Below, piece by piece: positions 38,300 through 53,458 of a stretch of DNA of 64,000 nucleotides. A program made the translations under genes and the position numbers. This stretch comes from Pseudeuparius sepicola. Taxonomy: Eukaryota > Arthropoda > Insecta > Coleoptera > Anthribidae. A model generated the notes under the pieces. It worked only from the letters and a program-made list of their open reading frames with translations. It was not told the DNA's origin and ran no database searches. Position 1 is the stretch's first letter. Every line of letters begins with the position of its first letter. The stretch spans positions 34,633,278 through 34,697,277 of the forward strand of contig OY987302.1 of NCBI GenBank assembly GCA_963920635.1. Reading direction: 5' to 3'.

Positions 38300-39422
38300 T
38301 CGATGTTTGGTAATTTGCACTAAGTGCCAAGAGTAGTCAACTTTTATTTTATTTTATTTTTTTATTTAACGAAGTTATTGCAAGATTTTAGTTCGTGTAT
38401 ATTTTCGAAAGATTTTTATTTGATTTTTTTTTAGTAGTTTTGATTTTATCACAAATGTACGGAAGGAATCAGATTCCCTTAAGGACACAATATCTTTTTG
38501 CCAATATTGATATTTGTACAGATTAATTTTTAATTTTTAATGATACCCTTCTCTTTAACAAAATAAAATTCTTACATTGATTACGAAATTCCGCTTTAAA
38601 AACAATTACGCTGGTAAAGTTTTGCTTACTAAAGTACTTGCATAAATTTGTCGTCAATTAATTAATTTCACTGGAATGTATAAATATGCAATATCGGCAA
38701 TTTTGATTATTTGGAATCTTTTTTACTATTATTAATGCGGCATGATTAGTTTTTCGCAATCACTTATTTTCTACCGAATGGGTACAAATTTATTTTTCTT
38801 TTTTTAAAATGAGTGACAAAAAAGACAATAAAATAATAACGAGAAGCGAAGCAAAAAAGACTAAACAAGAGCCCCTCGAGAAAGATCCTATTTCCGAATT
38901 CAAACCAACTCACCGCAGTACAGGCGTCGATCCCTTTACACCTCGAAGTTCGTTATCTCGAAGTCCAGGTCCAAACATAGACATTCTTTCCCCAGACATT
39001 CAGCCGAATAAATTTGTTTTCGAAATAGAGACAAAAATAAACAATACCTTGGACAATACATCAATTCTAGAAAATTCTAACAGCACTGCCATCCCTATCC
39101 CAAATGTACTAACTAAAATACAGACGTCCACACAAACCTTAACATACAGTAGGGCAAAGGAAACCCAGACTGAAATACTTACGTTAGACACACCACAACC
39201 CTTACAACTTCCTGACGACCAATACAACGAAAACCAGGGACACAAAATGTCACTAGACGCAACTCTTGCCGAAGCCCTTAACGACGCTAGAAACCCCGCT
39301 ACCCCTAAATACCAACCCCCTCCAAAATTTGACCCAAGCATTGACTCACCTACGACATTCATAAGAAATTACGAAAGAACAGCAATGACTAACGGATGGA
39401 CAAATAACTTCAAAATGATATA

Positions 39423-39835
39423 TGTTACGGGCGACGTGAAGACGAAGACTTTTTAAAAAACTTTTATTTGAGTAACGCGAGTTACAGAGTTTCGGCTTAG
39501 ACTACAAACAAGACTAGAATTAACACTCTTACTTTACTAGGTTCTATTTATACAGATCTGTTATGCTGAGGTGTTGTGGTTCTCATGGGAAAAGAATATA
39601 ATAAACAAAGGGAAGATCAAATTCTGCAATTCTTGCAGTAAGCAAGTTTTAACAATACTCAAAAGGAATATGATATGTTCTAGTAATCATTCTAGAACAA
39701 TATACAATGGAAAATGATATCTTTGTAGTAAGCATCTTGAACAATAGAGAATGAGAACATAATATCCAACAGTAAACAGAATCAAGGGTAAAAACAAGGT
39801 TATGATCAAGGTGATGCTTGAGGTCGGATATAACA
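39423..39835 (-). repeat. Element D 3' LTR
   Basis: Matches 52117-52473 but is longer. It keeps an AAGGAATATGATATGTTCT-type stretch of about 44 bp and a short T/A-rich block that the 5' copy lacks. The polypurine tract AAGGGGGAAAG lies just before it on the minus strand (about 39836-39847). Confidence 0.93.
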
Positions 39836-41107
39836 CTTTCCCCCTTATATTAAAAATTTGTGTTTTTGACATTAAATTAGGCATATGTTTTAGTATTAGA
39901 ATTTAGTTCAATTTCTTATTCTTCGCGAGGTTCGTCCAGTCTATACGAAGGTCTTCTTTTGACAGTAACAAATTTTCTTAAATTTTGAAAAACGCGATTT
40001 TGAGTTCTAGGAGGTTGTGGAGGATCGTCTCCGTTATTAGTAGTAATAATGCGTATTTTAATGTTCCTAGACTTTTTACATTTAAAATAAAAGTACACAA
40101 TAATTAAAAGTATGATTAAAGTAATGGATATAGATATGTCAATATTGGCGTATACTTATTTACAGTTGGTTCGTTACTTCGTTATTAGTTATTCGTCTAA
40201 TTTATGCTTTGCGACATTTAAATCGTCATAATTAAATTTATTTAGTTGTAAAGGTTTTAAGTCAGGAAATTTTAGTTTATTTGGAGTTTCTTTGCAACAT
40301 TCAAATGGTATATTAATTGGGTGAAATTTATAGGTTTGATTAGATTTATTTAAATTTTTCGTTTGAATTTTAGTACTTCCAATATAAGCAATGCATTCGG
40401 ATTTTAACGTTAAAATTGAAGTTTTGTCTAGCATTATAGTCAAAGGATTTTGATTTTTACACTTAATAGTTATAGGAAATATTTCACTTAAAATTATTAA
40501 CCATTGATTATCTTGAATCAATTGTACATTGTAACTTTCAATTGAAATTGTGACTATGTCACAAGTATTAGGTAAATGGGTTTTTACCTCTAATAATTGA
40601 GCTTCACATCTTGAATGTGAGTCAATAGGAGTAGGATATAAATCTTTGCACATTATTAAATCAAATGCAAGTTCTTTACAATTTTTTATATCATAGAGAA
40701 TTACATAGAGAGTTGGGTCATCGCTTTTTGCTACAAATTTAGTATCAGTGGATACCTCATCAACGTCGCCGAGTGTAGACGCATGTAGGCGCCTCTTTGA
40801 AAATACTCAAAAAAAACTGGTAGTTTAAGAGTAAAAATTTTTTTTAAATGTATAGATAGTACAGTGAATAGTGTATTTCTACGAACTGGATAATTTGGTA
40901 CGTGAAGTCTCGTTGTTTATTGCAAAACCGTAGATGTTTCTTTCATATGGAAGTAATATGGCCTAAAATCGCATAAATTCAAATTGCTGTTTTCCGTTTG
41001 TCTTTTTTTAACTGCAAAAAAAGACACATTTCGAGGCTGGCCGGTCAATGTACATAAAATAAAAATACGAGGCCGACTCAGAAAGTTCCAAATAACACGA
41101 TTTTGAA

Positions 41108-41757
41108 ATGAGTGGTTCTGAAAAGGAACTTACAAACAAAGATCTGTACAAACTACTACTGGACTCACAAAATAAACAAACAGAGAAGATAACTGCAGAA
41201 TTAAAAAAAACAATCTAGAGTTACAGAAAAAAATTGAAAGGAATGAGAAAGAAATAAAGTTTCTAAAAAATCAATATCTCATAAGTGAACGTAGAAGAAG
41301 GCGCAACAACGTAATAGTATTTGGCTTAAACCCGTCTTCCCAAGATTTGGTAGAATATACTATCCATAAGTTGCAAACCTTGCTTAAGATAGAAATCGTA
41401 TCAAGTGATATAAATAATATATATCTAATAGGAAAAAAGGGCATTCTAATAGAATTTGTTACCTATTTAAAAAAACAAACCTTATTTAAGCATATATCAA
41501 ATTTAAAAGGTAGCAAAGTTGCTATAGTTAATGACCTTTGTCCACACTATCAAAAAACACAAAGAGTTCTAGTAAAGCATTTAAAAGAAGCAAAGAAAAA
41601 TAATAAGCAAGCCAAACTAAAAGGAAGAAAGTTGGAGATAGAAGGAAAACTATATTCTGCTGAAGAATTGGAAGACAACAATAGTGGAAGTGAGTTCTAT
41701 AATGAAGTTGAAGGCGACTCTGAGGACAAAGATTCGAGTGAAGAAGAAAGAAAGTAA
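41108..41757 (+). pseudogene. LINE ORF1 protein, one frameshift
   Basis: Starts MSGSEKELTNKDLYKLL. An A-run near 41200 shifts the frame. The downstream part has a charged helical segment (KIERNEKEIKFLKNQ), then RRRRNNVIVFGLNPS, which resembles the first strand of an ORF1 RRM-like fold, and an acidic Ser/Glu-rich C-terminus (EGDSEDKDSSEEERK) ending at 41757. It probably binds the LINE RNA. The functional assignment is by position and family. Confidence 0.75.
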
Positions 41758-41959
41758 GAACAGACTATTACAAACAAAAATAAAAGAAAAAGACTAATCA
41801 AAAACACAAGTCCCAGAACCACAAGACAAACTAAACAAAAGTGATTTACATTTTTTGTATAAATAAAAATTCAGGTGAGAGGTATGATGTATATATGTTC
41901 AGTATCGGCATAATTTAAATTTCTTTATATATACCTACTACTAAAAAATAATATACTAA

Positions 41960-44884
41960 ATGGATCCTTACTTACAAGAATTTCAAATAACAGAACATTC
42001 AACTCAAGTAATAAAAAATACTAGTACATTCCTAAAAGTCGAAGAAACAAAACAATCTTTTTCTGTTTTACATTTAAATATTCGAAGTTTAAATAAGAAC
42101 TTTGAAAATGCTTTAATATTTTTAGAAGAATGTAAATACTTGTTCGACATTATTGTCTTTACAGAAACATGGAATATAGGAGATACAAATTTCTTTTCTA
42201 TAGATAACTAATAGGCAATACATAATGAGGGTCAAATAAACAGGAACGATGGGGTCATGTTGTACGTAAAGAGTGTCTACAAAAACTTTTTTAGTATACA
42301 AATTGAAAATATTAATGCAAATAGAGTTATTATAGCTAATATACAAATGGATTTTAGGAAAGTGATTCTAATAGCCCTATATAGACCACCAGAAACTTGT
42401 GCAATTGAATTCAATTTGAAAATAGCTAACTTTTTAGAAAACCATGTAAAGTCGACTAAAGATATTTATTTCTTAGTAGGGGATATAAATATAAACATAA
42501 AATCCCAACAAGAATAGTGCCAGAATTATCTCAATATATTTAGTGAATTTGGTTTCCAGTCTCCAGAATACACGCGAGTGCATAGTGGCTCAAAAACATG
42601 CATCGACCACATTTTTGTTCGAAACCCTAGCAATGACATTACGAGATCGTACGTTTTTCATTATGACATAACGGATCACTATCCAGTGGCTGCATGTATT
42701 GATCTTAAAGTCCCAGTTTCATGTCCATCTCCTGATATCAAAAAGTCCATAAAAAAGTTGGATAATAAAAAAATGGTTGAATTAATAAAATTGGAAACAT
42801 GGAACGAAATTTATGATAGTCAAAACGTTGATTCAATAACAACAACTTTTATCAAAAAAATTAAAAACGTTATAAATAAGGGCACAAAATTTTTTTTATT
42901 AAAAAACTTTACTAAGAAAAGAAAACCATGGATCACTCAAGGTATAATGAAGAGTGTCCAAGTAAAACAGAACCTATATAGAAATTGTATGAATAACCCT
43001 AATAATGAACATCTGAAACAAAATTATAATAAGTATAAACATAAATTTAATAAACTAATAAAAAATTGCAAATATAAATATTACCAACAAAAGATAGAAA
43101 AAAATAAACATTGTAAAAAGACCGTTTGGAAAATAATAAACGAATTTAGTGGTGTCAAGCATAAGGCGTGCAACATTTCAGAGATATTATTCCAAGATCA
43201 GAAAATTATTGATAAAAAATAAATTGCAAATCATTTCAATGAATACTTCACCACCCTAGGAAAAAATATGGCAGATAAACTCTGTACTACAGGAATTATT
43301 GAAATGAGACGAAAATTAAAAAACACAAATTTATTTTTATTCCCAACAGATAGCTTGGAAGTTGAAAGTTGCATTAAAGACCTAAAATTAAATAAATCTC
43401 CAGGTTATGATGAAATTTCTGCGGAAACCCTAAGGGAAATTGCACCATTCATTAAAGATCCTCTATGAGATATAATAAATAACAGTTTTAAATACGGCCA
43501 TTTTCCAAATATTCTTAAGATTGGGTTAATAAAGCCCCTTCTTAAAAAGGGAGATTCGAAACTACTTTGGAACTACCGACCTATTACTTTAATATCAAAT
43601 ATCGCTAAAATTGTTGAAAAAATAATAAAGCGTAGACTAGTAAAATATTTAGACAAAAACAATATACTATCTAATAAACAGTTTGGTTTTAAAGAAGGAA
43701 TTTCGACAGAGGATGCCATGGTTTTCTTAACAAATAATATATACAAAGCTCTAGATCGGGGAATGTCAACTATAGGTGTTTTTCTTGACTTGGCCAAGGC
43801 CTTCGACACTGTTAGTCATGATATTTTGGCTACAGTGTTAGAGGACCTTGGCGTGAGGGGCCTTGCACTAAATCTAATGAAATCATACCTAAGTAATAGA
43901 GTTCAATATGTTACTATAGAGAATCATATTAGTTAGCCACTAACTGTGGAATGTGGCGTCCCGCAGGGTACTGTTTTAGGTCCCATATTATTTTCTTGTT
44001 ACATCAATGGTTTACTAAATCTTGACACAAAAGGTATCATTTCTTCCTTCGCCGATGATACAGTTATACAATACACTGGAAAGAATTGGAAGGACGTTAA
44101 AAACACTGCTGAAACTGACTTACAAAAGATCATATCTTGGTTTGATACTATGAAACTTACTATTAATTTTGAAAAGACCAAGTTCATGCCATTTAGTTGT
44201 GATAAGAGGAAGATTCCGGACTATCGTACATTCGTTGTATCAAAAAGTCCAAGTTGTAATGTTTCTATCAGCTGTACCGATACAATCGCATATTTGGGTG
44301 TAGAATTTGATAGGCACTTGAAGTAGGATAATCACATATCAAAACTTTCAAAAAAATTAAGATCAGTTACCTACAAATTGAAAATGTTAAAAAAGGTTGA
44401 CCTTAAAACCACTTACCACGCATTAGTGGAATCCTTACTCCAGTATGGGATTGCAGCTTGGGGTAGTACTTATAAATCTCATATGCATCGCCTCGAAGTA
44501 CTTCAAAAATCATTCCTAAAAATCTTACTTGGTAAAGACAGAATGTATCCCAGTATTTTATTATTCCAAGAAAGTAAGGTCCTAGATCGAAGACAATTAT
44601 TTTTTCAAAAAATCCTCAACTTACAATTTAAAAATAGAAATAAACTAATACATATATCACATAAATATCCTACCAAACATAAAGAACACAAACAAATTAT
44701 AACCTCAAAAGTTTCCAAACGATTAGCACAATGTTCCCTTGATTATATTGGCCCTCGTGTATACTGCTTATTGCCTAAACAGATAAGATCAATTAACAAT
44801 TTAAACTTGTTTAAACAAAAAACTAAAATATGGCTACAAGAAATTGATAAACAGATACTCAGAAATATATTTAAGATAGTTTAA
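41960..44884 (+). pseudogene. LINE ORF2 (AP-endonuclease + RT) with in-frame stops only
   Basis: One frame runs from MDPYLQEFQITEH to the stop at 44884. Endonuclease blocks: LHLNIRSLNKN, FTETWN, ALYRPPE, FLVGDININI, SKTCIDHIF and ITDHYPV. RT blocks: LNKSPGYDEIS, LIKPLLKKGD, LDLAKAFDTVSH, GVPQGTVLGPILF and catalytic SFADDTVI. The frame is never shifted but is stopped near 42210 (two adjacent stops), 42516, 43221, 43467, 43935 and 44325. Several of these are readily explained by C-to-T or G-to-A changes (for example CAG to TAG before PLTVECG). FADD is intact. Confidence 0.9.
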
Positions 44885-46264
44885 CTTACAATCTATTTAT
44901 TATTCGATAAGTTACTTACCTCACTTAAACTGCATACTTACCTGAACCAAAATATATATCTAATTACCTCCACCTGCATGCACTACTCATCTGCCACATT
45001 TAATGTATAATGCTTAATATCTACTTTAATGACATATTTGTATCCGGCCTGTTGTAGTACTATAAATACTTGGATTTAACCACGCACATATCAACTTGTT
45101 TGATATCAGTGGAATTCCGTTTATTTATGTTCTCAGCGGAATTCATAGAAATTATGGCTAATATTATTATTAAATTAATTAAATTTTATTATTATTATAC
45201 CATAAAATAAAATATTGTAAAAATTTTTGAGATAATAAATATCTACTACTACTACTACTACCATGTGATAAAATCCAGTTTTATTGTCGAAAATTGGAAT
45301 AGGCTAAATTCTATAAAGAGTATACCATTGAGGTTCTACTAAAGGAATGTCTAATATAAAAACAAGCCTATTTTCTGTTTGAAAAACCTTTAGTTCTATA
45401 AAATCAAGATAAGTTGCAACATTTAGAAGTTGAGGAGTTTAGGGCAAATTATTTTTATTTAAAGTCTGAGCGATTATTTGCAAATGATGAACCAAGTCTT
45501 CGGGAGTTATAACTGATGTGTGAATGATATGTAGTTTTGCAAAAGTAATAGAGTTTAGAATGTCATTTAAATTGCTTTCGATAAAGGTATAGGATTCTAG
45601 GAGTCTTTCGGCCATCTCTAAAACTTGTAATTTTGCAGTGTAATAATTAAAATTATCAGAAATATTACAAATGTAATTTTCGATTTGTTTTATGTCATTA
45701 TTAAAAGTAATTTCATCAATTTGTAATTTGTTGATAGAGTCATTAAAATTTTTGATAACTGAAGTAGTTACTAAAATTTGTTTTTCATTAGTTTTTCTAA
45801 TTCGTGTTCGTCTCTGTTAATTTTGTCGATACAATCGTTATAATACTGTCCGTCTGAAGGGTCTAAATTTCCGGTAATAAATTTCCAAACTGACCCTAAA
45901 CCATTAATTAAACCTCTTTTATATCTTCTTACATCAATAGCTAATTCTTCAAATTTGAGCGCAATGTTTTCGGAAAGTTGATTTAGTAAAGTGAGATGTG
46001 ACTTAACTTCGCTTAGAAAGGCGGCCATTCGTACGTCTTTTGGTTGAATTATAAATTGCATATTTTCTAAAATTTTATTATTATTTTCGAATGTTGTTTT
46101 TAGAGATGAAATGTCTTTATATACCAATAAACTCCACTTGTCATTAGAAATTTTGAGTCCGGATTGCTCTTGATAGAACACGCCTATGGTGTTATTAATT
46201 GGTCGCAGTGTATATTGTGCCATAGCGGTAGCGAACAAAGAAAATCTGTAACGAAGTTTCAGAA

Positions 46265-48173
46265 TTAGGAACTTGGTTCGATATAACAAATTATTTTAAT
46301 ATCAGTATGTTTGAAAATATATTTGATCATAGGGAGAACTGTGTCCCAATCTAATTTGTCTAATCCACAAGATAACTTGGGTATAGCTATAATTTTATCT
46401 TTTTCATCAGTGCTCTCAAGACAAATTGTTCGTAATTCCTTTAAGCAATTAAATAAATTAGCATAAGTTGGTTTATAATAGAAAAATTCTTTAGTTATTA
46501 AATAATAAATATTTCTTGTCGGAAGTACTGCTATTTCACCAATTGACTTATTTTGATTTTTTAGTTCATCTACGTGTCCAAATTTATTCTTAAATTCTTT
46601 TGCAATCCCTGCATTCATTTCTAAATCTTTAGATACACAGTGAGCTAATGAAATATTTTCAGGGGCATCAAATAAATTGCCCAGTTCAATGGAAACGTTA
46701 TTATTTTCAATAGGGGTTTTTCGATCTAGAGTATAAAAGAATTCTTTAACCGTTAGTTCTTCTTCCCCCAATTCGTGACATTTCTTTAGCATATCAAAAT
46801 TCATTTTTGTAGTTTGGTTAGTAATTGGGTTATGTAGCAAAGCTGAATTCGTATAAATTTCTTTAATTTTATAGGGTCCATTAAATTTGTTAGCTAGTTT
46901 ATTTTTTATTTGGGACTCCTTGACATCAACCTTTTCTCCTACGCGAAATTGTCGCTGCTCCGAAACGTGTGTATCAAATCGCTGTTTTGCCTTTTGCTTG
47001 CGCATATCCGTACGCTTTCTTGCCACTTCATAATAATGCTTTATTTTATTGTTTAAATCGCGAACGTACTTAGAGATTAATTCTTGCTGATTATACAAAA
47101 CTTCTGGAGGTCGAGACGAGGTGTGACCGAATAGCAATTCGTAAGGAGTAAAGCCGTGTGTTTTATTTATAGAATTGTTATAGGCTATACAAGCGTAAGG
47201 AAGCATTTGAAATGGGTGCTCATTTGGATTTTCTGTACTACACGCACGTATCATTTCAGTTAAGGTGGCATGAAATGTTTCTAAGGAGCCATTTGATTGC
47301 GGATGACTAACACTAGAGAAAGTTAATTTTATATTGTATAATTTACAAAGATCTTTCATTAATTGATTATTAAATTCTTTACCTACATCGCAATGGATTC
47401 TTAAAGGAGTTCCAAAATGTTGCAAATAGAGTAAAATAGCGTCTACTACAGATCTCGGTAAATTTTGTCAGTTCGTCTCTTATGGTAAGGATATTATTTT
47501 TCACTGGGATTTCTAGAATGTCAATATTTATTCTTTCGAAAGGAGTTTTAGGAGTTTCGGTAATGACTAAAGGACTGTCCAAGTTTTGTCTACAAATTTT
47601 TGTCTTTTGGCAGATTTCGCACTGCCGAATAAATGTTTCAACGTCTTTAGTTAGTCCTGTCCAATTATATTTTTGTTTGACGCGTCTAATTGTTTCGTTT
47701 ATTCCTCGATGTAAGTTTGTCTTGCCTGAATGAAATTGATCTATTATTATAGGTATTTGGTCTTCGTCTGGTATAGTCACAATGTTCTGACAAATTGTTA
47801 ATTGAAAGTTTTTGTCTGAGAACAAAAAATTAAACATTTCTAAAATTGGAAAATCTGGATTGTTTTCAATGTAATAAGTTTTATTTTCTTCGAATATATC
47901 TTTACTGTAATAAAGAGATCTGAAGAGTACTTGTATTGCGGTTTCAAAATTAAAAGGAACAGGAATTATATAATATTTTGTTTTAGCTACGGTTTGACTG
48001 GAAAGAACATTTGCTTTATTATAGTTAAAATCAGGATTTAGCTCAAGTAAATCATCAATAACTTTTTCGTGAAGGTCTGTTAATTTGTCTTGTTGAAAAA
48101 TTAGTACAATGTCTTTGTGTGTTTTGTCTAAAAGTTGATTATTTGTGTATTGGATTTTAGAATAGTCGATCAT
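46265..48173 (-). pseudogene. Element D integrase with C-terminal macrodomain
   Basis: The first part (48173-47379) holds the zinc-binding region (QFHSGKTNLHRG, CEICQKTK) and the first catalytic Asp (RINIDILEI). A one-base shift near 47440 leads into a 386-codon frame (47425-46265). Its residues 1-60 give the second Asp (RIHCDVGKEF) and, 35 residues later, the Glu (SNGSLETFH). Then comes an SH3-like C-terminal domain (FNGPYKIKEI, residues 181-190). Without any stop, residues 243-382 form a macrodomain, described separately. Typical errantivirus integrases end shortly after the SH3-like domain, so this one is extended by about 140 residues. The env start overlaps its end. Confidence 0.88.
46280..46699 (-). 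other. Macrodomain of TARG1/OARD1 type fused to element D integrase
   Basis: Residues 243-382 of the frame 47425-46265. They read IELGNLFDAPENISLAHC, then NAGIAKEFKNKFG, GEIAVLPTRNIYYLITK, YYKPTYANL, IPKLSCGLDKLDW and TDIKIICYI. This order is that of cellular TARG1/OARD1-type macrodomains, which bind ADP-ribose and remove it from acidic side chains. The catalytic Lys of that family (human Lys84) corresponds to residue 312 (YYLITK, codon 46490-46492). The catalytic Asp (human Asp125) corresponds to residue 356 (CGLD, codon 46358-46360). The usual GD near the N-terminus is GN here. The domain is complete and unbroken in an otherwise decayed element. Fold assignment is strong. Activity is inferred. 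Confidence 0.88.
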
Positions 48174-48179
48174 TGAAGT

Positions 48180-49987
48180 CGTCTTGTATAGATAAAAAAA
48201 TCTGCCAAATTCATTACAGATTATGGCAATTTCGTCAGTCTCATTATTGTCAATAGGCGGGTCAATGTCTTGAGGATTATCATGGGAAGTAGATGGTTCG
48301 TCTAGGGAAGTATGAAAGGAAACAGCTTCTTTTATATGATTGATTTTGATTCGAGATAAAGCGTCGGCATTTCGATTAATTTTTCCAGGTTTATAAATTA
48401 TTTGATAATTATATTCTTCTAATTTAAGTCGCCAACGTGCTAAACGACTACCGGGATCTTTTATTGAGAAAAGCTAGGTTAAAGGTCTATGATCTGTAAC
48501 CAATAAGAATTTTCGTCCGAAAAGATAAGGTCTATAGTTTTTCACGGCAGCAATTATTGCCAAAAGTTCTTTCTCTATAACGCTATATTTCATTTCTGCT
48601 GGACTTAAGGTTCTTGAAAAGTATGCTATGGGAAGATCATTTCCAACAGGTCCTTGCGAAAGTACCGCGCCTACAGCAAAAGCGCTTGCATCTCTGTAGT
48701 TAAAACAAATTCTTTTTCAAAATTAGGATATATTAGAATTGGTGAAGTTATTAATGCATTTTTAAGTTGTTCGAAAGATTCACGACAATCTTTATCAAAA
48801 ATAAATGGTACGTCTTTTCTTAAAAGTCGAGTTAAAGGCTTTGTCATTTTTGCGAAATTTGGAATAAACTTCCTGTAGTAACCAGTAAGACCCAAAAATT
48901 GTTTAATTTGTTTAGTATTGGCAGGTTGAGGAAAATCGATAACAGCTTGTACCTTTTGTGGATTTGGTTTAACCCCTTCAGGTGTAATAACATGTCCTAA
49001 ATAAATTACTTCTTTTCGTAAGAATTCACACTTATCTGGCTGTATTTTTAGATTTGAATTTCTTAATCTTTGAAAAACTTCACTAATACGAGAGATATGC
49101 TCATTAATTGTGGAAGAATAAATAATAATGTCGTCCATGTAAACTAAGCACTTTTCGTTTTGTATCCCCATTAGTATATTATCCATAACCCTCTGAAAAG
49201 TTGAGGGCGCATTACGAAGGCCAAAGGGCATACGTAAATATTCAAAATGACCATTTTCAACGGAAAAAGCAGTTTTCGAAATGTCTTCTGGATTCATTTC
49301 AATTTGTTGAAAACCAGAAGCCAAATCTAAAGTAGTAAAATTATGGCAATTACCCAACTGATCTAATATATCTGAAATATTAGGCAGTGGATACCTGTCA
49401 TTAACTGTTAATTCATTTAATTTCCGATAATCAATTACGATTCTCCATTTTTGTTTGCCTGAAGCGTCTAATTTTTTTGGAACGACCCATACTGGGGACG
49501 ACCATGGTGAAACAGAAGGTCTAATTATTCCTTGAGAAAGCATTTTATTAATTTGCGTTTTTACTTCTTCCTTGTGAACTTGTGGATATCGATAAGATTT
49601 AGTAAAAATTGGCTTGGCATCGCCTGTATCAATAGTATGTTTTATTTCGTTAGTAAAACTTAGGAAATCTCCGTCAAAGTAGAATATATCTTCAAAATTC
49701 AAACATAAATTAGTAATTAGTTCTTTTTCTTCTTCATTTAAATGTTCTAGCCTTAATGATTCTTTTATTTCTTCTACTCTGCTTTTTGTTTTATTAAAAT
49801 TACAAATAATATTAGTACTAGCGTTCGTTTCTTCAATGTAAAACTCAAATTCAAATTCTTCGAAACAAATATCCTTTGTTATGGCATTAGCGTTTAATAT
49901 TGTGGTATAAAAATTACCGTCTTCGTTTATTTTTACAATAGCGTTTGGCACATATACTTTTTCTACTCGTTGTGCGCATAAAATCAT
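48180..49987 (-). pseudogene. pol: Element D reverse transcriptase / RNase H
   Basis: An open frame of 438 codons (49987-48671). RT blocks: fingers SYRYPQVHKEEV, GIIRPSVSPWSSPVWVVPK, KWRIVIDYRKLNEL, palm TTLDLASGFQQIEM, MPFGLRNAPSTFQ, catalytic LVYMDDIIIYS, and the thumb YLGHVITPEGV, FLGLTGYYRKFIPNF. The RNase H start (PNFEKEFVLTTEMQ) is followed by a frame break near 48685. The rest of RNase H is readable in pieces to about 48180 (minus-strand blocks such as VTDHRPLT and RWRLKLEEY). YMDD is intact. Confidence 0.92.
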
Positions 49988-50761: not shown

Positions 50762-51779
50762 CTAGAAACCTGAATTATTATTAAAAGTTCTGGGGAAGTT
50801 ATTTCTTGGAGCATTATTAGAAAAATTTCTAGGAGGTTGATTTCTTGGTTGGAAGTTTTGAGGGTGGTTCCTAGGTTGGAAAGAAGGAGTTTGAAAATTA
50901 TTTTGCTGAGGAAAAGATGGTCTTTGATGGAACCTATTTTGGGAGAAATTATTTCTTTGGGATTTATTTTGGAAATTGTTAGAGAAGCTAGAAGGATTTG
51001 GACCATTTCTGTAATAATTATTTTGATTTTTTGTTCGACATTCATTGATAGTATGTCCATTTCTTTTGCAATACTTACAAAATTTTGGAAAACTATTATT
51101 AGTTCTCTTAACATTATTATTGAAGACTGGTACACGATTTTGCCTCTGAAATTTTTGATTTTCAAAATAAGAAAGTTGCAATTCTCTCTTAATTAAAGCT
51201 ATAGCATCCATCATGTTTGGTGGATTGCTAGCACGAATTAGTTGCCCTATTCTTGGTTCTAGACCTGTCAAAACTGTATTTAGACACATGCTATCGATTA
51301 ATGTAGCTTGCGACTCTTTTTGTTCCCTAGTGAGAAGGCTTTGTTTTCCTATTGCGGCATACATTTTTTGAGCAGTGAGTTTGAACTCTGCCTACAAAAG
51401 TCAAAGCATTTTCATTTTGGGATTGACACATTCTTTGTAAATCTTGAATTAATGAAGTTAGATCGCGAGGATCTCCGAAATGAACGTTAAGTAATTGTTT
51501 GATTTCGCGTCAGGTACTCAAATCTCTTGAATTGATAAGTTGGGCTGCACGTCCCTTTAATTGATTTTTTATTTTGATAACTAGTAAAATAGCTTAATCG
51601 CCAACAGTCATTTGCATGGCCCTATCACATGCAATGATAAAAGTATTTAAATTGATTTGATCCCCATCGTATTCAGGGATGATAGAAAATATTTCGCTTA
51701 ATTTAAATGGTACTTCGTCGTTATTTGAAGCGTTTGCTTCATTGTTTACATTAGAGTTTATAGCCTCGTTATTCGGCAT
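50762..51779 (-). pseudogene. gag: Element D gag
   Basis: The start at 51779 (MPNNEAINSNVNNEAN) opens the N-terminal part with FSIIPEYDGDQINLNTFI, the gag capsid start. It is stopped at 51594 by a TAA. After further breaks the capsid C-terminus and nucleocapsid lie at 51364-50762. That segment includes LTGLEPRIGQLIRASNP, a single zinc knuckle CKYCKRNGHTINEC and a long Asn/Gln/Pro/Phe-rich tail. Order and motifs match insect Ty3/gypsy gag. Confidence 0.85.
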
Positions 51780-52116: not shown

Positions 52117-52473
52117 TGTTACGGGCGACGTGAAGACGAAGATTTTTGAGTAACGCGAGTTACAGAGTTTCGGCTTAGACTACAAACAAGACTAGAATTA
52201 ACACTCTTACTTTACTAGGTCCTATTTATACAGATCTGTTATGCTGAGGTGTTGTGGTTCTCATGGGAAAAGAATATAATAAACAAAGGGAAGATCAAAT
52301 TCTGCAATTCATGCAGTAAGCAAGTTTTAACAATACTCAATACAATGGAAAATGATATCTTTGTAGTAAGCATCTTGAACAATAGAGAATGAGAACATAA
52401 TATCCAACAGTAAACAGAATCAAGGGTAAACACAAGGTTATGATCAAGGTGATGCTTGAGGTCGGATATAACA
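52117..52473 (-). repeat. Element D 5' LTR
   Basis: Plus-strand TGTTACGGGCGACG to GGATATAACA. It matches the LTR at 39423-39835 but with a deletion of about 44 bp around 52340. Confidence 0.93.
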
Positions 52474-53458
52474 TATATCTTGATGATTTTCTTGAGGGAC
52501 CAGCTCATGTGTGGTATTATAAATACATAAAAAACAATGATAATCGTGATAAAAAATGGGACTGTATTAAAGAGGATTTTATTAAAGAATTTAGTGGGGA
52601 AAACCCAAATCGGAAATTAAAATTTAGGTTAAACACACGTAAACAAGGGGATAATGAAGATATAAAAAAATATTACTACGATTTGGTGGCCTTATCTTTC
52701 GAGGTCGATCCCAATATGTCTTTCGAAACATTCCGTGACCATTTCGAAAACGGCCTGCACTCATCTTATCATGAAACTTACTATATGTTGAGTAACTCTG
52801 ACTTGAATGAGTCGACACTCAAAAGTCTCGTTTTAAAATTAAGTGAAATTAGGGAAAGAGCGCTAGTTTCGCGTATGGTGTCACAAACGTCACTATTAAC
52901 TATAGGGGATAATCAACAACATCAAAGAACTAGAGGATCATACATCGCAAGAGGGACGAATGAAAGTTACCCTAGGAGAGGAAGAGGCTCGTTCCAACCC
53001 CAACGAAGAAATGGATACCATAACCCACAACAAAGAGGTCGAGGAAATTTCTATGGCCATAGCAACAGGGGGACCTACAGGTCAGACAACTACACACCTC
53101 ATAGATATTGTAGAGGACACGGCGGAAATAGAAACTTTGGCAGAGATAGGTCTAGATACAGAAGCCAAAGTGGAGACAGGCCAGAATATAGAAGCCAAAG
53201 TAGGGACAGTTCGAGATACCCGAATCACAGCAGGGATAGTAGATCGAATTCTATGGAGAGAAGCTTTCCAGACACCAGATGCACAGACGGAAGAGCACGA
53301 TACAACGATTGCAACAGATGTGGACATTACTACTGCGACAACATCCCCTCGCGTCCCAGACAGGTATCTTTTTCTGAGACCTCCCCAAACGAGAGCGGGC
53401 GGTCCAACTGAAACACCCCGATGGGGTCGTTCTTCAAACAGGGGTTAATAAAAATAGT

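What the first reader, a model, noticed from the sequence alone, without database searches (positions are those of the whole stretch)
46280..46699. TARG1/OARD1-type macrodomain fused to the integrase of an errantivirus-like element
Directly seen: one 386-codon frame holds the integrase core (Asp and Glu 35 residues apart), the SH3-like domain, and then a complete macrodomain with all blocks in order and both catalytic positions kept (Lys residue 312, Asp residue 356). Established: TARG1/OARD1 hydrolyses ADP-ribose from Glu/Asp and from DNA. Viral macrodomains (alphaviruses, coronaviruses, hepeviruses) counter host ADP-ribosylation. Inference: the element captured a host-type ADP-ribosylhydrolase to resist PARP-linked defence, or to act at DNA breaks during integration. 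The domain is unbroken although gag, protease and env have decayed. I am not aware of a description of this fusion, but I cannot search the literature.
Basis: partly seen in the sequence, partly recalled or inferred. Interest (0 to 1): 0.94.

Follow-up and report, generated by a model that had tools for sequence, protein, structure and literature searches.

The report
Retroelement integrase fused to TARG1 macrodomain
A family of young, insect-type endogenous retroviruses carries, fused to its integrase, an enzyme domain of the kind cells use to strip ADP-ribose marks from proteins and DNA, and related mobile elements carry the same kind of domain at other places, which suggests that this group of genome parasites repeatedly exploits ADP-ribose removal.

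The parts
46277..46705 (-). TARG1/OARD1-type macrodomain, residues 241-383 of the 386-aa frame; Lys312 at 46490-46492, Asp356 at 46358-46360
46706..46789 (-). linker between integrase C-terminal domain and macrodomain; its end resembles the stretch just upstream of RNase H-integrase macrodomains of other elements (I.NN.V pattern, by eye)
46790..47425 (-). second half of integrase core and C-terminal domain
47598..47765 (-). integrase H2C2 zinc-binding domain
   Evidence: Pfam PF17921 1.7e-16; coordinates
47784..48173 (-). spacer between RNase H and integrase, predicted macrodomain fold without the catalytic Lys
48351..48689 (-). RNase H domain (in-frame stop in this copy), to the NADALSR motif
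48671..49987 (-). reverse transcriptase frame (438 aa)
   Evidence: RVT_1 3.4e-40
50762..51364 (-). gag 3' part with CCHC-like motif (weak Pfam match, E 0.35)
45771..46289 (-). env, first part, Baculovirus F type; frame overlaps the pol end
   Evidence: Baculo_F 7.6e-8
40189..40653 (-). env, second part, separated by the LINE insertion
   Evidence: Baculo_F 1.5e-7
40757..45258 (+). non-LTR retrotransposon inserted in env
   Evidence: RVT_1 7.7e-14 at 43946-44323; interval from comparison with copy L004
52117..52473 (-). 5' LTR, followed by a primer-site-like stretch (resemblance to tRNA-Leu recalled, untested)
39423..39835 (-). 3' LTR, preceded by a polypurine stretch; duplicated TATA at 39419-39422 and 52474-52477

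Best explanation
A young, multi-copy, env-bearing Ty3/gypsy element (errantivirus-like) encodes at the C-terminus of its Pol, fused to integrase, a complete TARG1-type ADP-ribosylhydrolase domain. Because it is part of Pol, it should be packaged in the particle and reach the nucleus with integrase and the new DNA (inference). There it most likely removes ADP-ribose that host transferases place on the incoming DNA ends or gaps, on integrase, or on acidic residues of chromatin proteins next to the integration site (inference). Shown: domain, fusion, copy number, kept catalytic residues, purifying constraint, recurrence in other Pol proteins at several positions. Inferred: enzymatic activity, packaging, substrate. 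The domain of this family was probably taken from another retroelement whose TARG1 domain lies between RNase H and integrase, while the element's own spacer at that place looks like an older macrodomain that lost its catalytic Lys.
For: TARG1 identity and fold. 107 scored copies of 5,041 first-look candidates, 97-100% identical, 2 of 107 with an internal stop, 46 of 107 in open frames of 1,495-1,499 codons (one of these 46, L008, reads through a stop). Copy L004 reads RNase H, spacer, integrase, macrodomain in one frame, env in an overlapping frame. 47 of the 107 copies: Lys and Asp in 47 of 47, pN/pS macrodomain 0.176, linker 0.279, integrase 0.035. 20 copies chosen by their env DNA, not by the macrodomain: all 20 carry the domain, Lys and Asp 20 of 20, pN/pS macrodomain 0.199, integrase 0.166. 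Macrodomain between RNase H and integrase: P0003, P0025, P0026, P0027, and P0002 with only the end of RNase H; P0001 and P0019 seen from one side. In the same genome: L060 (RNase H, macrodomain, further stretch, integrase; 1,582-codon frame) and L066/L072 (protease-like end, macrodomain, RT). Tree: window family with P0001 98/95, in a retroelement clade 89/89. TARG1 removes Glu/Asp-linked and thymidine-linked ADP-ribose, the latter dependent on Lys84 (PMC8501950, passages).
Against: No activity, expression, packaging or substrate was tested. pN/pS rests on young copies; the first set was picked by protein similarity, which lowers pN, and there the macrodomain ratio is five times that of integrase. 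In the second set 5 of 20 copies have gaps of 2 to 17 bases in the fused region, 3 of them (2, 4 and 17 bases) not multiples of three. Of the close integrase relatives that reach the end of integrase, 0 of 9 (P0007-P0014, P0016) have the C-terminal domain, so the lineage can do without it. Several of the RNase H-integrase domains are under Pfam's Macro cut-off (P0001, P0002, P0003, P0019, P0027, L060, L062: 13.8-21 bits against 22) and are called by similarity to the window domain or TARG1. The tree is short (152 columns), 4 of 17 inner branches open. Some macrodomains only bind ADP-ribose (recalled); kept residues do not prove hydrolysis.
Confidence: 0.6

Rival explanations
1. The domain is an ADP-ribose reader, not an eraser: it tethers integrase to ADP-ribosylated chromatin, as a chromodomain is thought to do in chromoviruses, so its role is target-site choice.
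For: Position at the Pol C-terminus, the place of the chromodomain in chromoviruses (PMC12440569, passages).
Against: Lys and Asp kept in 67 of 67 sampled copies; in other elements the domain sits at positions not tied to the integrase C-terminus.
Confidence: 0.2
2. Counter-defence in the cytoplasm or particle: the hydrolase acts on ADP-ribosylated Gag, Env or RNA placed by host antiviral transferases, comparable to alphavirus and coronavirus macrodomains.
For: Viral macrodomains are known for this role (recalled); presence at three places in Pol suggests that any Pol position serves.
Against: No host transferase acting on such elements was looked for or identified here; nothing tested.
Confidence: 0.15
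3. Passenger: a neutral C-terminal extension spread by a few successful master copies.
For: Young family; absent from 9 of 9 close integrase relatives that reach the end of integrase.
Against: pN/pS 0.18-0.20; all 20 env-chosen copies keep it; recurrence in other families.
Confidence: 0.05
4. Assembly or chimera artefact at one locus.
For: None found.
Against: 107 scored genomic copies.
Confidence: 0.01

Closest known systems
TARG1/OARD1/C6orf130 (human)
   Same: Macrodomain fold, 45% identity over 137 residues, catalytic Lys84/Asp125 equivalents kept
   Different: Stand-alone cellular enzyme; here a domain of a retroelement Pol
Errantiviruses (insect env-bearing Ty3/gypsy)
   Same: LTRs, Pol order, Baculo_F-type env, 4-bp TATA duplication
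   Different: C-terminal macrodomain; none of the listings shows such a report
Chromoviruses
   Same: Extra module at the Pol C-terminus (PMC12440569, passages)
   Different: Chromodomain is a reader (recalled); this domain has the residues of a hydrolase
Orchid Ty3/Gypsy elements with an AlkB m6A demethylase (PMC9289625, abstract)
   Same: Capture of a mark-removing enzyme by a Ty3/gypsy element
   Different: RNA demethylase in an additional open reading frame, in plants
Macrodomains of alphaviruses and coronaviruses
   Same: Virus-encoded macrodomain fold (structural rows)
   Different: RNA viruses with MacroD-like domains (class recalled); here TARG1 class in a reverse-transcribing element
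DarG antitoxin
   Different: Bacterial antitoxin

Membership tests
TARG1-class macrodomain | Sequence and fold match to TARG1 over the whole domain | tested here: met
TARG1-class macrodomain | Catalytic Lys84 and Asp125 equivalents | tested here: met
   K312, D356 in the window; 47 of 47 and 20 of 20 copies
TARG1-class macrodomain | Hydrolysis of Glu/Asp- or DNA-linked ADP-ribose | not testable with these tools
   Needs a biochemical assay
Errantivirus-like Ty3/gypsy | RT, RNase H, H2C2 integrase order | tested here: met
Errantivirus-like Ty3/gypsy | Env related to baculovirus F protein | tested here: met
   7.6e-8 and 1.5e-7 for the two parts; env frame open over the 520 codons printed from L004
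Errantivirus-like Ty3/gypsy | LTR pair with short target-site duplication | tested here: met
   LTRs, TATA; joined flanks read through a gag frame
Errantivirus-like Ty3/gypsy | Insect host | tested here: inconclusive
RNase H-integrase spacer as a macrodomain | Macrodomain fold | tested here: met
RNase H-integrase spacer as a macrodomain | Detectable sequence homology to macrodomains | tested here: inconclusive
   hhalign E 0.0023, 19 columns; 0 of 300 column shuffles reach the score; no macrodomain among PDB or Pfam sequence hits
RNase H-integrase spacer as a macrodomain | Catalytic Lys and GLD loop | tested here: not met
   Other residues or a gap at the Lys place and a gap over the loop in alignments that are themselves of low confidence

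The most novel reading that the evidence does not exclude
ADP-ribose removal is an old and recurrent function of Pol in Ty3/gypsy retroelements: the RNase H-integrase spacer of errantivirus-like elements is a relic TARG1-type macrodomain, kept as a scaffold after losing catalysis, and some lineages keep the active enzyme there while others regained it elsewhere (integrase C-terminus, protease-RT junction, or a second copy beside the relic).
Probability: 0.5. Interest if true: 0.93.

Novelty: new variant of a known kind. Interest (0 to 1): 0.87.

Why it matters
If active, this would be a retrovirus-like element carrying its own ADP-ribosylhydrolase fused to integrase, pointing to ADP-ribosylation (of integration intermediates, integrase or chromatin) as a barrier in its hosts. 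It gives a testable enzyme with natural replicates at several Pol positions, and it may explain the undefined spacer between RNase H and integrase in errantivirus-like elements.

Tried and rejected
Chance match or artefact: rejected. Sequence-only search of the spacer against PDB and Pfam: no macrodomain (best PDB rows cystatin B and TFIID subunit 1, E about 0.1; best Pfam row DUF4279, 0.0076). Global hhalign of spacer and macrodomain gave no meaningful alignment (E 0.31). The column-shuffle control (best of 300: 22.9 against 24.4) destroys local order and is a lenient one. The spacer-like stretch of the second family (L060), as a single sequence, matched neither the window spacer nor macrodomains, so the relic idea is tested only on the window lineage. 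Foldseek by itself ranks M17 aminopeptidases and designed hydrolases above named macrodomains for the spacer (best E 2.9e-4); TARG1 comes first only in the VIA realignment, where one of 50 rows, PFV integrase, covers the H2C2 part only. First macrodomain tree (13 rows) was mostly unresolved (7 of 10 inner branches open); the 20-row tree left out P0019 and P0005 (long or partial). In the integrase tree the long rows L060, P0019 and P0018 are unsafe; in the RNase H tree no branch is starred. A search with P0008 for a sister family without the domain returned 100 scored rows of 7,125 candidates at 70-71% identity, none closer to P0008 than the window family is; presence of the domain was not checked row by row. 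Searches had strand or register errors; their N/S counts against the window copy are discarded, while the pairwise differences among L002-L008 are in register and mostly synonymous, as. P0015 and P0017 were left out of the count of relatives without the C-terminal domain because they stop short or are rearranged.

Full report

2. The element. LTRs at 39423-39835 and 52117-52473 differ by two indels (56 gap positions) and 4 substitutions and are flanked by TATA duplications. The joined flanks read through a gag frame of another Ty3/gypsy element, so this is a nested insertion. Pol reads RT, RNase H, spacer, H2C2, integrase, macrodomain. Env is of Baculo_F type and is split by a LINE at about 40757-45258. 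RNase H has an in-frame stop and the integrase core frame is broken near 47.45 kb. Copies with open frames exist.

3. Genomic copies. The assembly is unnamed, 769 Mb in 16 contigs. The named close protein relatives are beetles, so a beetle host is likely but not proven. 107 copies, the window's included, were scored of 5,041 first-look candidates; all cover the fusion at 97-100% identity; 46 of 107 lie in open frames of 1,495-1,499 codons; 2 of 107 show an internal stop, one of them among the 46. An env DNA query gave 489 candidates, 40 scored, all 99-100%. Of the 107, I compared 47: Lys and Asp 47 of 47; an internal stop in 1 of 47; pN/pS 0.035 integrase, 0.279 linker, 0.176 macrodomain. That set is biased to good protein matches. 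A second set of 20, taken from the 40 env rows: all 20 carry the domain, no stop in register, but gaps of 2 to 17 bases in 5 of 20, three of them not multiples of three; 3 of 20 do not cover the first part of the integrase stretch; Lys and Asp 20 of 20; pN/pS 0.166 integrase, 0.321 linker, 0.199 macrodomain. The constraint on the domain is thus close to that on integrase in the less biased set. In 7 copies the spacer has pS 0.0218 and pN 0.0019, so it too is constrained.

4. The domain recurs at other places in Pol. Database searches returned 28 distinct proteins. P0003, P0025, P0026 and P0027 have RNase H, macrodomain and integrase in that order, P0002 the same with only the end of RNase H; P0001 ends in the macrodomain and P0019 starts with it. 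Only P0025 and P0026 pass Pfam's Macro cut-off; the others are called by E-values of 1e-22 or better to the window domain or P0003, except P0019, whose macrodomain is called by BLAST (6e-14). Of relatives that reach the end of integrase, 0 of 9 (P0007-P0014, P0016) have a C-terminal macrodomain. In the same genome, human TARG1 found 150 scored places of 848 candidates, all below 1e-34. Besides the window family there are L060/L074 (1,582-codon frame: RNase H, macrodomain 768-904, a further stretch, H2C2, integrase), L063/L066/L072 (macrodomain between protease and RT: L072 has a protease-like end, weak in Pfam, plus macrodomain; L066 macrodomain plus RT, RVT_1 6.8e-31) and L062 (macrodomain after a protease-like end, by eye). 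L061 is a 711-codon frame with three TARG1-like macrodomains, no retroelement domain in Pfam, and one DNA match in the genome: possibly the host's gene.

5. Origin. In the 20-row tree the window family joins P0001 (98/95) within a clade of RNase H-integrase macrodomains (89/89). The second family goes with L071 (90/88), and L063/L066 with L061 (85/88). By RNase H the window element is 70% identical to P0003 and P0025 but 50% to P0001, so the C-terminal domain does not follow the rest of Pol. I read this as transfer between elements, with at least two further captures. Root and host sampling are poor, so this is a lead.

7. Function. Shown: kept catalytic residues, constraint, spread. Inferred: an active hydrolase brought to the integration site by Pol, working on ADP-ribosylated DNA or proteins. 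TARG1 removes thymidine-linked and Glu/Asp-linked ADP-ribose (PMC8501950, passages). Rivals: a reader that steers integration, or cytoplasmic counter-defence.

8. Novelty. Ten searches of the paper library were made. Those that joined macrodomain or TARG1 with retroelement terms (8, 11, 12, 41, 43; 0, 1, 5, 7 and 0 papers) listed nothing on a macrodomain in a retroelement Pol; these were seen as listings only. One search was looser (2,214 papers, 25 listed, none of the 25 with the word macrodomain). The library lacks most subscription papers and all preprints, and PMC12992720 (passages) cites a 2024 survey of errantiviruses by Chary and Hayashi that I did not see. The nearest precedent is an AlkB demethylase in orchid Gypsy elements (PMC9289625, abstract).

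Noticed in passing
L061:2914-5046 (G000:C1:131514000-131520500): Single-copy 711-codon frame with three tandem TARG1-like macrodomains and no retroelement domain in Pfam; possible host TARG1 gene, the first two domains diverged.
   Followed up: partly
L060:647-5392 and L074: Second element family with a TARG1 domain followed by about 330 residues before H2C2, part of which resembles an errantivirus spacer by eye; hhalign did not support that.
   Followed up: partly
L063, L066, L072, L062: Ty3/gypsy elements with the macrodomain between protease and RT (protease part weak or by eye).
   Followed up: partly
protein P0004: Weak PHD finger, macrodomain and GDSL lipase in one protein, like the make-up of a CR1-type LINE ORF1 (that comparison recalled); perhaps a capture by a non-LTR element.
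   Followed up: no
proteins P0006 and P0028: TARG1-like macrodomain joined to DUF4326 (P0006) and C-terminal to a region that looks like a 2H phosphoesterase by eye (P0028).
   Followed up: no
viral structure library hit A0A7S8ZX98: 'Aedes aegypti To virus 1' protein, named as an RdRp, is the best structural match of the window spacer plus H2C2 in that library (E 8.3e-8); it may be a misnamed retroelement Pol.
   Followed up: no
window 38809-39422 and 52478-53411: Gag of another Ty3/gypsy element, target of the nested insertion.
   Followed up: partly
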